Assembly: GCA_037176705.1 (NCBI GenBank)
Contig: CM073896.1
Location: 25,804,708 to 25,868,707, forward strand
From: Molossus alvarezi
Taxonomy: Eukaryota > Chordata > Mammalia > Chiroptera > Molossidae
Length of the DNA: 64,000 nucleotides
Direction of reading: 5' to 3'
Below are positions 12,128 to 17,606 of this stretch, piece by piece; position 1 is the stretch's first letter, and each line of letters begins with the position of its first letter. Under the pieces are notes generated by a model. The model searched no databases. It was not told the DNA's origin and saw only the letters and a list, made by a program, of their open reading frames with translations. A program made the translations under genes and the position numbers.

Positions 12128-12139
12128 TAACCTTTGGCA

Positions 12140-12204
12140 TTTTTTTTTTTTTCATTCAGGCACTGTCTTCTGGCTTTGTTGAATCTCTCTTTTTTTTTTT
12201 TTTT
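12140..12204 (-). other. L1 3' end with two poly(A) tracts and a 37-bp putative 3' transduction
   Basis: In element orientation the 3'UTR ends in AATAAA and poly(A) (12204-12190). A non-L1 segment of 37 bp follows (12189-12153, starting gagagattcaacaaagccag), then a second poly(A) (12152-12140), then the TSD. Because the TSD lies outside the second poly(A), the 37 bp arrived with the insertion. Such a segment is copied when transcription passes the L1's own weak polyadenylation site at the source locus and ends downstream. Confidence 0.82.
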
Positions 12205-12239
12205 ATTGATTAATTTTTGTTACAAATGATTCTCCATTT

Positions 12240-12285
12240 CCCCCCACTGATTCCCCCCTCCCCCTTCCCTCCCTGCCCCTTCCCC
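12240..12285 (-). other. G-rich tract in the L1 3'UTR (possible G-quadruplex)
   Basis: On the sense (minus) strand this is a polypurine tract with at least four runs of three to six G (as in ggggaaggggcaggg). Such tracts are typical of L1 3'UTRs and can form G-quadruplexes. The related place in the plus-strand L1 (about 40918-40975) is also purine-rich. Confidence 0.7.
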
Positions 12286-12394
12286 TGATTGTTGTCCATG
12301 TCCACTGTTCATGCCTCCATGCATTTAAGTTCTGTTGTTCATCCCTCTCTCAGCTCCCCACTCCTTAGGGGATTGTCCTCAAACTTTATGTTCA

Positions 12395-15300: not shown

Positions 15301-16219
15301 TTTTGAGGTAGGCCTGTAGTGCTATAAACTTCCCTCTCAGAACTGCTTTTGCTGCATCCCATAGATTTTGTATTGTTGTGTCCTCATTTTCATTGGTTTC
15401 CAGGAAGTTTTTGATTTCTTCCTTGATTTCCTCGGTGACCCATTCATTGTTTAATAACATTCTATTTAGCTTCCATGTGTTAAAATGTCTTTGCATGTTC
15501 TTCTTGCAATTGATTTCTAGTTTCATACCATTGTGGTCTGAGAAGATGCTTGTTATAATTTCAATCTTTTTGAACTTGTAGAGACTTAGTTTGTGCCCTA
15601 ACATGTGGTCTATCTTTGAGAATGTCCCATGTGCACTTGAGAAGAATGTGAATTCTGTAGTTTTGGGGTGTAGTTCTCTGTAGATATCTATTAAATCCAT
15701 TTGGTCTAGTGCTTCATTTAGAGTCTCTGTTTCCTTGCTAATTTTTTGTCTAGAGGATCTATCCAGTGATGTGAGCGGGGTGTTGAAGTCCCCTGTTATG
15801 ATTGTATTACTATCGATTTCTCCTTGGAAGTCCTCCAGAAGATTTTTAATATATTTTGGTGCTCCTATATTGGGTGCATATATGTTTATCAAGGTTATAT
15901 CTTCCTGTTGGATAGATCCTTTCAATATTATGTAGTGGGCTTCTTTGTCTCTAGTTATGGCCTTCAATCTGAAGTCTATTTTATCAGATATCAGTATTGC
16001 TACCCCAGCTTTTTTTTCTTTTCCATTTGCTTGAAAGATTTTTTTCCATCCCTTCACTTTCAATCTATGTGAGTCTTTTGTTGTGAGGTGGGTTTCTTGT
16101 AAACAGCATATAGATGAGTCTTGCTTTCTTATCCAGTCAGCTACTCTGTGTCTTTTTATGGGAGCATTCAGTCCATTTACATTTAAGGTGGTTATTGATA
16201 TGTACTTATTTATTGCCAT
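12395..16219 (-). CDS. L1 ORF2 protein: endonuclease and reverse transcriptase, 1274 aa, uninterrupted
   Basis: ORF2p nicks target DNA and copies its own RNA onto it (target-primed reverse transcription), in a ribonucleoprotein with ORF1p. The N-terminal APE-like endonuclease keeps the expected residues: N13 (TLNVNGLN), E42 (LQETHL), D144 and N146 (GDFNTPL), D204 (KIDH), and D228/H229 (SDHN). The RT domain has D599 (ISIDAEKAFD), the TRQGCPLSPLLFN block near 656-668 and FADD at 699-702. The C-terminal Cys-rich part has the order CWRGCGEKGTLAHCWWEC. At 1274 aa it is within one residue of human ORF2p (1275). The ATG (MAINKYISI) lies 45 nt after the ORF1 stop, the usual spacing for the low-level, termination-coupled translation of L1 ORF2. 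No stop or frameshift is present. Activity is inferred, not shown. Confidence 0.96.
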   Translation of the reverse strand: MAINKYISITTLNVNGLNAPIKRHRVADWIRKQDSSICCLQETHLTTKDSHRLKVKGWKKIFQANGKEKKAGVAILISDKIDFRLKAITRDKEAHYIILKGSIQQEDITLINIYAPNIGAPKYIKNLLEDFQGEIDSNTIITGDFNTPLTSLDRSSRQKISKETETLNEALDQMDLIDIYRELHPKTTEFTFFSSAHGTFSKIDHMLGHKLSLYKFKKIEIITSIFSDHNGMKLEINCKKNMQRHFNTWKLNRMLLNNEWVTEEIKEEIKNFLETNENEDTTIQNLWDAAKAVLRGKFIALQAYLKKEEKSLIDYLTSQLKELESKQKEIPRASRRKEIVRIRAEINDIETKKTIQRINKTKSWFFEKINKIDGPLARLTKKQRERTQIHKIKNETGEITTDPTEIQNIVNNYYEKLYGNKFENLGEMDKFLETHSLPKLDQIEIENLNRPITTEEIEDVIKTLPANKSPGPDGFTGEFYRTFKEELIPILLKLFQKIQEEGRLPNSFYEASITLIPKPEKDTTKKENYRPISLMNIDAKILNKILANRIQQYTRKIIHHDQVGFIPGMQGWYNIRKSINVIHHINKLKNKNHMIISIDAEKAFDKIQHPFLIKTLSSVGIEGSYLDIIKAIYERPTANIILNGQKLKAFPLRTGTRQGCPLSPLLFNIVLEVLATAIRQEEKIKGIQIGKEEVKLSLFADDMILYIENPKDSTKSLLDLINEFGKVAGYKINVKKSMAFLYTNDELTERETKQTIPFTIAAKKLRYLGINLTKEIKDLFAENYRSLKKEIEQDVKKWKNIPCSWIGRINIIKMSILPKAIYRFNAIPIKIPTAYFKELEQLLQKFIWNQKRPRIATAILKRKNKVGGITIPDFRLYYKATIIKTAWYWHKNRYIDQWNRIENPEMDPRQYAQLIFDKGGKSIQWSKDSLFNKWCWENWTATCRKMKLDHQLTPYTKINSKWIKDLNVTHESIKILEETVGNKISDIIRSRIFTDTSPKAIETKEKMNTWDYIKLKSFCTAKDTIIKTERLPTVWESIIANDISDKGLISNTYRELIQLHKRKTKNPIKKWAEELNRHLSKQDIQMAKRHMKKCSSSLIIREMQIKTTMRYHLTPVRMAAINKSSNNKCWRGCGEKGTLAHCWWECRLVQPLWKTIWCHLKKLKIELPFDPVIPLLGIYPKKPETPIRKNICTPIFVAALFTIAKIWKQPKCPSVDEWIKKLWYIYTMEYYAAVRKKDLLSFETTWRDLESIILSETSQAVKDKFHMISLISGI

Positions 16220-16264
16220 TTTTGTTTAGTGTGGTTCTGTTTTTCTTCCCATTTCTCCTGGTAA

Positions 16265-17167
16265 TTACAGCAGTCCTTTTAACATTTCTTGCAGTGCTGG
16301 TTTGGTGCTAATGTACTCCCTTAGCCTTATTTTGTCTGGGAAGCTCTTTATTTGGCCTTCTATTTTGAACGATAGCCTTGCTGGGTAGAGTTGTCTTGGA
16401 TTCATATCCTTGTTTTTCATGACCTTGATTACTTCATGCCATTCCCTTCGAGCCTGTAATGTTTCTTGTGAGAAGTCAGCTGAGAGCCTTATGGGGGTTC
16501 CTTTGTAGGTAACCTGTTGCTTATCTCTTGCTGCTTTTAGGATTCTCTCTTTGTCTTGAATTTTTGGCAGTTTGATTACTATGTGTCTTGGTGTGGGCCT
16601 GTTTGGGTTCTTCTTACTTGGGGCTCTCTGAGCTTCTTGAACTTGAATGCCTTCTTCCTTCACCAAATTAGGGAAGTTTTCTGTCACTATTTCTTTGAAT
16701 ATATTCTCTAGCCCTCGCTTACTTTCTTCTTCCTCAGGGACTCCTATGATACGAATATTATTACGTTTCCAGTTGTCCCACAATTCTCTTAAGCTCTCTT
16801 CTTGTTTTTTAATCTTTTTTTCCTTTTGGTTTTCTGATTGGTTGATTTCTTCTAGCCTTTCTTCTAATTCACTGATCCGGTCCTCAGCTTCCTCTACTCT
16901 GCTTTTTAGACCTTCCAGTGTGTTTTTCATTTCCGATATGTCATTCTTCATTTCTTCCTGTTGGTTTTTCATTTCCAGATGGTTTATTTTCAACATTTCT
17001 ATGTCTTTACTCATGTTGCTCATGTCCTTACACATGCTGTTGAGCTTCCGCAACATCATGGCTCTAAATTCTAGTTCTGTTAACTTGCTTAACTGCACCT
17101 CATTTATTTCATCTTCTGTAGAGGTCTCTTGATCTTTCATTTGGCTTTTGTTTCTGTTTCTCACCAT
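16265..17167 (-). CDS. L1 ORF1 protein: RNA-binding nucleic-acid chaperone, 300 aa, uninterrupted
   Basis: ORF1p coats L1 RNA as a trimer and is needed for retrotransposition. From the start MVRNRNKSQMKD the order is: a basic, disordered N-terminus (1-35); a long heptad-rich coiled coil (about 40-130, many E/K with L/M/I spacing, e.g. ISELEERLEEINQ); an RRM-like domain with RNNIRIIGVPE; and the C-terminal domain with DKERILKAARDKQQVTYKG and LYPARLSFKIEGQ, ending MLKGLL. Human ORF1p has 338 aa and a longer tail. The frame is open 32 codons further upstream to a Met at 17263, but the chosen start matches the ORF1 start of the plus-strand L1 (MVKQRKKSQMKE) and of other mammals. No disabling change is seen. 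Confidence 0.94.
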   Translation of the reverse strand: MVRNRNKSQMKDQETSTEDEINEVQLSKLTELEFRAMMLRKLNSMCKDMSNMSKDIEMLKINHLEMKNQQEEMKNDISEMKNTLEGLKSRVEEAEDRISELEERLEEINQSENQKEKKIKKQEESLRELWDNWKRNNIRIIGVPEEEESKRGLENIFKEIVTENFPNLVKEEGIQVQEAQRAPSKKNPNRPTPRHIVIKLPKIQDKERILKAARDKQQVTYKGTPIRLSADFSQETLQARREWHEVIKVMKNKDMNPRQLYPARLSFKIEGQIKSFPDKIRLREYISTKPALQEMLKGLL

Positions 17168-17590
17168 TTTCGTTATCACAGTGGGCTTTGGAGTCTGCCA
17201 AGTTTTCCCAGTGGGTGTTGGTGTTTTGCTGTTTGTGGCTCCCTCTCCTGGGTTTGGATGCACCGGGGAGGACCCACTTTAATCCCGCCAAGTCCCCTGT
17301 TCTCAGGGAGTCTGTGTGGCTCCAGTGGGGAGTTTAGCAGGCTATAGCATTAGGAGGACCCATGCAGGGTGGCAAGGGAGGCAGTGGGAATAATTTCCCG
17401 CCGAGTTCCCTGGTCCTGCCCAGTTCCCTGGGGGCCAGGAGTCTGTGCAGCTTCAGCGGAGAGTTTAGCCCGCTACAGAGTTTCCAGGGTCCTGCAGGCG
17501 GGAAGGGAGACAGTAGAGTTCACTTTCCACCGCGTTCCCCTGTCCCACCCAGTTGCCTGGGGTCTGCGAGTCTGTGCGGCTTCAGGGGCA
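17168..17590 (-). promoter_or_regulatory. L1 5'UTR with ~130-bp CpG-rich tandem units (internal promoter)
   Basis: On the plus strand the landmark tctgtg(c/t)(g/a)gcttcag recurs at 17311, 17442 and 17571, i.e. every 129-131 bp. Each interval carries the same blocks: cctgg..ctg.cc.agttccc, a purine run aaggga..cag, and gagtttag.c.gct. There are about two full units plus a third, diverged one, then a unique ~110-bp lead into ORF1. CpG density is far higher than in the flanks. Mouse L1 uses monomer arrays as promoters in this way. The Pol II promoter role here is inferred by analogy. Confidence 0.75.
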
Positions 17591-17606
17591 TAACCTTTGG
17601 CATTTT

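What the first reader, a model, noticed from the sequence alone, without database searches (positions are those of the whole stretch)
12128..17606. L1 with both ORFs intact and an exact 16-bp TSD: candidate active retrotransposon
ORF1 (300 aa) and ORF2 (1274 aa) have no stop or frameshift, and all expected endonuclease and RT residues are visible. The TSD copies are identical, and removing the element restores the host repeat exactly. Every other L1 in the window is broken.
Basis: partly seen in the sequence, partly recalled or inferred. Interest (0 to 1): 0.75.

Follow-up and report, generated by a model that had tools for sequence, protein, structure and literature searches.

The report
Young bat L1, promoter end missing
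A bat chromosome carries a recently inserted LINE-1 jumping gene with both protein genes readable but the start of its promoter missing; a scrap of foreign sequence at its tail points to a parent element that is absent from this genome copy, so jumping was probably recent in this bat lineage.

Summary
In detail: a minus-strand L1 at 12144-17590, both ORFs open (300 and 1274 aa), exact 16-bp target duplications, inserted in an older broken L1. "Candidate active" is only partly supported. (1) The copy is not full length. Ten of 13 related copies checked have a conserved non-monomeric 5' leader, then 3.1-8.0 monomers; this copy has no leader and 2.0 monomers on the same measure. (2) ORF1 carries a private Leu259Gln at a column that is L, I or F in the 116 homologues covering it; no private change departs from an ORF2 column invariant in 15 homologues. 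(3) Its tail holds 37 nt between two A-runs. With up to 3 mismatches that string occurs at one other place in the 2.5-Gb genome, exactly, and no L1 is there; the junction fits an L1 endonuclease site (TCTT/AA). So the parent L1 was most likely a segregating insertion; polymorphism itself was not observed. All 12 near-complete relatives compared (of 20 fetched) carry stops or frameshifts. The host resembles a molossid bat, species unidentified; a 2023 paper assumes LINEs inactive in Molossus molossus.

The parts
12128..12143 (.). target-site duplication, 3' side of the element (left in window)
   Evidence: D12; empty-site alignment; nick site TTTT/GA read
12144..12152 (-). second A-run (9 A, plus 4 A of the duplication)
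12153..12189 (-). 37-nt transduced segment; one other exact copy in the genome, at C47:23230360-23230396
12190..12204 (-). first A-run (15 A), directly after the L1 end with AATAAA
12205..12394 (-). L1 3' UTR with G-rich purine tract
   Evidence: sequence
12395..16219 (-). ORF2, 1274 aa, open: endonuclease, reverse transcriptase, Cys/His motif
16220..16264 (-). inter-ORF spacer, 45 nt
16265..17167 (-). ORF1, 300 aa, open; private Leu259Gln
17168..17282 (-). tether part of the 5' UTR, shared with the older copy at 35.7 kb
17283..17590 (-). tandem monomers of about 129 bp: two and a partial third (308 bp); family leader missing upstream
17591..17606 (.). target-site duplication, 5' side of the element (right in window)
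   Evidence: D12
11861..12143 (-). older L1 that was hit (ORF1 part, left of the insertion)
17607..18184 (-). older L1 that was hit (rest of ORF1, right of the insertion)

Best explanation
This is a recent L1 insertion made by target-primed reverse transcription in a molossid-like bat. Shown: it sits at a TTTT/GA site inside ORF1 of an older L1 with a 16-bp duplication; both ORFs are open; the 5' end lies inside the monomer array, and the leader that starts full-length relatives is missing. Inferred: the RNA came from a parent L1 that had inserted at the TCTT/AA site at C47:about 23230397, was read through past the parent's own A-tail into 37 nt of its 3' flank, and was copied into the window locus. 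The parent is absent from the assembled C47 allele. L1 copies are not known to leave cleanly (general knowledge), so the parent was probably never fixed and the daughter jumped while it segregated. Inferred, weaker: the daughter itself is a poor source, for lack of the leader and because of ORF1 Leu259Gln.
For: TSD and nick. Open ORFs and domain matches. Transduced string at exactly two places, 0 for the reversed control; no L1 in the 9.5 kb fetched around the C47 copy, no N there. Junction hexamer within one mismatch of the L1 site, a fit that 136 of 18992 positions there have (0.72 %), so about 2 % by chance for the three junction placements that the A's allow. Three other L1 3' ends in the window align only up to the first A-run, and the 39 other scored 3' ends of the genome begin at query base 57 or later, reaching at most 6 of the 37 nt. 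Leader present, 5-27 bases after a target duplication, in 10 of 13 related copies checked, absent here. Terminal coding branch 0.52 %, shortest of the single copies (others 0.62-2.5 %). Neutral decay: half of such elements would be broken at 0.09-0.22 % divergence and 95 % at 0.39-0.97 %. Published precedent for transduction sources with no donor L1 near them in the reference, read by the authors as L1s that segregate differently: PMC4862182 (passages).
Against: The second A-run is short (9, or 13 with the duplication) and the C47 flank itself reads AAAATAAAA there (1 mismatch in 9), so the end may be internal priming, not a polyadenylated end. No AATAAA lies inside the 37 nt; the nearest is the L1's own, about 50 nt upstream. 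Polymorphism of the C47 site was not observed, only inferred from one assembled allele. Relatives were picked by their 3' end: 40 of 355 candidates were scored and 20 fetched, so nearer ones can exist. The element's place in the tree is weakly supported (57 and 58). L022 also starts inside a monomer with its own 16-bp duplication, and mouse L1s start transcription within monomers (PMC10620060, passages), so such a start need not abolish expression.
Confidence: 0.75

Rival explanations
1. The copy is a competent, currently active L1; two monomers suffice as promoter and Leu259Gln is tolerated.
For: Open ORFs and all expected catalytic residues. All 17 departures from 481 invariant ORF2 columns occur in older copies or in related copies. 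In the mouse Tf element L1spa two monomers are the minimal active promoter (PMC9022269, passages).
Against: Leader missing, monomers fewest of the 12 monomer-bearing copies measured, itself included; Leu259Gln at a column L 85, I 30, F 1.
Confidence: 0.15
2. The 37 nt were joined by template switching: the enzyme started on an unrelated C47 RNA and then jumped to the end of an L1 RNA. No L1 ever sat at C47.
For: The C47 site is empty in the assembly; L1 chimeras with other RNAs are described, though at the 5' end in the passages seen (PMC13174262).
Against: The junction fits an L1 nick site, 0.72 % by chance per position and about 2 % over the three possible placements, and directly follows a 15-A run after the L1 end, as expected next to a real L1.
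Confidence: 0.15
3. The parent L1 is fixed at C47 but missing from the assembly through collapse or another assembly error.
For: Repeats can be lost in assembly (general knowledge); only one allele is held.
Against: C47 is a 57.8-Mb contig; the 9.5 kb fetched hold no N and no partial L1 of this family.
Confidence: 0.07
4. An old copy kept open by chance or by use.
For: The terminal branch (0.52 %) is not far below the next ones (0.62-0.66 %).
Against: Chance of staying open at 1 % divergence is about 0.2 % with an assumed indel rate of 10 % and about 4.5 % by the window's own calibration; 0 of 20 fetched copies has an ORF of 1270 aa or more, the longest is 996.
Confidence: 0.05

Closest known systems
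Human L1 (ORF2p structures 8uw3 and 9k6g)
   Same: Two ORFs, EN + RT + Cys motif, end-to-end ORF2 match; ORF1 RRM and CTD match 2ykp/2yko; full-length relatives start with a YY1-like sequence (likeness inferred)
   Different: Monomeric 5' UTR; leader lost in this copy; 45-nt spacer
Mouse L1 Tf/A/Gf (monomer + tether promoters, PMC9022269 and PMC10620060, passages)
   Same: Tandem monomers followed by a non-monomeric tether
   Different: Monomer about 129 bp, not about 200; in the relatives a non-monomeric leader with the YY1-like sequence precedes the monomers; ATGGC is not in this copy's 5' UTR
L1 fragments of Molossus molossus (P0004, P0025, P0241, P0276, P0277, P0315)
   Same: Closest named proteins over the parts they cover: ORF1 94-95 % (P0004, P0025), RT region 89-90 %
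   Different: Fragments; none of nine M. molossus fragments has an exact match in the 31 fetched loci or the window
Primate germline 3' transductions with no donor near the source in the reference (PMC4862182, passages)
   Same: L1 tail carrying unique sequence from a site where the assembly has no L1
   Different: Bat, single case, polymorphism not observed

Membership tests
L1 clade of non-LTR retrotransposons | ORF2 with AP-type endonuclease, reverse transcriptase and C-terminal Cys/His motif | tested here: met
L1 clade of non-LTR retrotransposons | ORF1 with RRM and C-terminal dsRBD-like domain | tested here: met
   both above curated cut-off
L1 clade of non-LTR retrotransposons | ORF1 trimerisation coiled coil | tested here: inconclusive
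   PF17489 18.3 bits, below its cut-off of 22.2; human ORF1p entry 6fia matches 42-131 at 1.2e-06
L1 clade of non-LTR retrotransposons | A-tail, target duplication, TTTT/AA-like nick | tested here: met
   TTTT/GA
full-length L1 of this bat family | 5' leader starting AAAATGGCGGC (8 of 10 exact) near the duplication | tested here: not met
   best match to the 93-nt leader part has 53 mismatches in the window, 0-3 in 10 relatives; motif
full-length intact L1 | both ORFs open | tested here: met
retrotransposition-competent L1 | jumps in a cell assay | not testable with these tools
   none
L1 3' transduction | unique 3' flank of a source locus, between two A-runs, inside the duplications | tested here: met
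   the second A-run may be partly genomic
L1 3' transduction | donor L1 at the source locus | tested here: not met
   no L1 of this family in 9.5 kb of the assembled allele; nick site present; other alleles not seen, so the donor may exist there

The most novel reading that the evidence does not exclude
L1 is still mobile in a molossid bat: the donor at C47 is a segregating insertion, so this genome holds a donor-daughter pair of which only the daughter was assembled. If the species is Molossus molossus or a near congener, the published inference that LINEs and SINEs are inactive there does not hold for the lineage.
Probability: 0.55. Interest if true: 0.5.

Novelty: new member of a known kind. 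Interest (0 to 1): 0.38.

Why it matters
It shows how 'both ORFs open' can mislead: only comparison with related copies of the genome shows that the promoter end is gone. The 37-nt tag names one exact site where a donor L1 can be looked for by PCR or reads. Ricci et al. 2023 (PMC10239488; outline with abstract and 10 passages seen) report no intact LINE ORF in Molossus molossus and assume LINEs inactive; an ORF-intact copy in a molossid-like genome makes that testable, though the species here is not identified.

Tried and rejected
Species: the closest named L1 proteins are from Molossus molossus, but an exact-locus test (genome search with P0277) did not complete. Searches of genome contigs and viral contigs with ORF1, and of viral contigs with the tag, found no relative. 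Rfam gave nothing at gathering scores. Folding of the 3' UTR was not remarkable (z 1.39). 'Private missense at invariant ORF2 residues' was feared for A94, R341, T554, I882 and T1052, then rejected: four of them are in 12 of 12 relatives, A94 in 5 of 12. High divergence of the 5' UTR was set aside because monomers align out of register; ages rest on coding sites. A 9-bp likeness between the tag and the flank of the 20-kb copy (seen) is taken as chance. Not done: a genome-wide count of open ORF2s and a genome-wide search with the leader (requests did not complete).
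Full report
What is there. The element lies on the minus strand, 12144-17590, between two exact 16-bp copies of TAACCTTTGGCATTTT. ORF1 (300 aa) and ORF2 (1274 aa) are open and match human L1 ORF1p and ORF2p structures, ORF2 from residue 4 to 1273. The element sits in ORF1 of an older L1 of the same orientation; the joined flanks align to L1 ORF1 with no gap at the junction. The nick was TTTT/GA (read). The other L1 matches in the window are fragments or disabled; the 262-nt piece at 56.6 kb has no stop or frameshift but is only a piece.

ORF quality. I compared 15 ORF2 homologues of 1250-1300 aa, all of that length among the 120 listed: 11 named (8 of them rabbit, plus dingo, ass and Peromyscus) and 4 unnamed, so the set is narrower than its number. 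The copy departs at 17 of their 481 invariant columns. Twelve of the 17 are shared with older copies in the window; the other five are shared with related copies of the genome, four in 12 of 12 and A94 in 5 of 12. So none is private. Private amino-acid changes against ten related copies are 4 in ORF1 and 8 in ORF2. The one that stands out is ORF1 Leu259Gln: of 120 listed homologues aligned (3306 were found), 116 cover the column, with L 85, I 30, F 1; it lies beside the conserved LYPARLSF stretch. ORF2 Lys132Gln (K in 93 of 97, Q in 2) is milder. What these changes do was not tested.

Relatives in the genome. The window lies in G000, 2.50 Gb, contig C26. A 273-bp query from the 3' end had 355 candidates, 40 scored. 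I fetched the surroundings of 20. Twelve are nearly complete, at 2.3-4.7 % from the element over all aligned sites, and each of the 12 has stops or frameshifts in the element's frame; the longest ORF in the 20 is 996 aa. These 12 are not 12 insertions: L011-L013 share one target duplication, and L026-L027 another. In a tree of coding columns the element's terminal branch is 0.52 %, those of other single copies 0.62-2.5 %; the element's exact place is weakly supported (57 and 58). Private coding changes are 19 (8 silent, 11 not). Nine relatives pooled have 228 not silent to 67 silent, a difference that is suggestive only (p 0.09); I left out L009 (106 to 57, a longer branch), which would weaken the contrast. 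Part of the element's branch may have been gained in the parent under selection.

Age. With 4.5 % of random coding changes making a stop and assumed indel rates of 5-14 % of substitutions, the element would be broken with even odds at 0.09-0.17 % and with 95 % at 0.39-0.73 %. Calibrated on the window's older copies (62 disabling changes per 944 substitutions), the figures are 0.22 % and 0.97 %. With an assumed 2-3 x 10^-9 changes per site and year the 5 % bounds are 1.3-3.6 million years, or 3.9 by the calibration at 2.5 x 10^-9. The exact duplication adds little (bound above 30 million years).

Truncation. The 5' UTR here is 423 bp: two monomers of about 129 bp with a partial third, and a 115-bp tether. 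Thirteen related copies were checked for what precedes the monomers. Ten share a leader with AAAATGGCGGC (8 exact, L020 and L026 with one difference) 5-27 bases after a target duplication, and have 749-1373 nt from that motif to ORF1. L009, L018 and L022 have no leader; L022 begins inside a monomer beside its own 16-bp duplication. The window copy has no leader (best match 53 mismatches of 93), and on one measure 2.0 monomers against 3.1-8.0 in 11 relatives. By analogy with human and mouse L1, where YY1 guides the start of transcription (PMC11602158, listing; PMC10620060, passages), the leader is the likely start site; that ATGGC is a YY1 site here is inference. In mouse, starts also occur in monomers, so the copy could be a daughter of an RNA begun in a monomer and need not be truncated in reverse transcription; the missing leader is the same either way. 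The older window copy at 35.7-41.0 kb shares the tether but not the monomers, so the promoter of this family changed. One text search (LINE-1, bat, monomers, promoter, Chiroptera together) found no paper in the held library; [quoted passage not shown] the source of that list was not held.

Transduction. In sense direction the tail reads: L1 end with AATAAA, 15 A, 37 nt, 13 A of which 4 belong to the duplication. The 37 nt with up to 3 mismatches occur at two places in the genome, both exact: here and at C47:23230360-23230396; the reversed control pattern has none. In 9.5 kb at C47 nothing matches the element at E 1e-3 except these nucleotides and the A-rich string after them (48 bp, one mismatch). 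The junction there is CATT/AAGAGAGA, that is TCTT/AA on the nicked strand, one mismatch from the L1 consensus (consensus recalled); 136 of 18992 positions fit as well, about 2 % for the three placements that the A's allow. The simplest account is a parent L1 inserted at that nick on another allele. A like pattern in primates was read as L1s that segregate differently from the target site (PMC4862182, passages).

Host. ORF1's closest named relatives are Molossus molossus fragments, 94-95 % over the parts they cover; RT fragments 89-90 %. None of nine such fragments is exact in the loci held. 'Molossid-like bat' is as far as this goes. Ricci et al. 2023 (PMC10239488, abstract and 10 passages) found no intact LINE ORF in M. 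molossus; this copy would probably pass their stated test (complete RT and EN domains), but it need not be the same species.

Verdict. The sequence observation is right. The copy is best described as a young, ORF-intact, leaderless L1 with a 3' transduction from a site that is empty in this assembly. Its own activity is doubtful; recent mobility of its family is likely.

Noticed in passing
L011-L013 (C45, C43, C9): Three copies 0.1-0.3 % apart share one target duplication and lie in an older L1's ORF1 within a few bases of the homologous position hit in the window (by eye): a segmental duplication, and a second independent hit at nearly the same L1 site.
   Followed up: partly
L026 and L027 (C20, C21): Two copies 1.6 % apart share one target duplication, so one insertion was later duplicated.
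   Followed up: partly
21375-23112: L1 fragment whose two halves lie in opposite orientation and abut at about 22241, as after twin priming (name recalled).
   Followed up: no
37282-37394: Short tRNA-SINE-like insertion (Ves-like, recalled, by eye) breaks ORF2 of the older L1 at 35.7-41.0 kb.
   Followed up: no
35739-41017: Older L1 differs from the element with an excess at third codon positions (10.5, 8.0, 14.8 %; p 7e-8), as expected if the lineage evolved under selection. CpG losses lean towards the older copy (26 against 12, p 0.03). Its upstream 5' region does not match the monomers.
   Followed up: partly
49309-49500, 53416-53516, 57965-58033: Tetranucleotide arrays (TCTA, AAGG, TCTT), the last with 100 % matches.
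   Followed up: no
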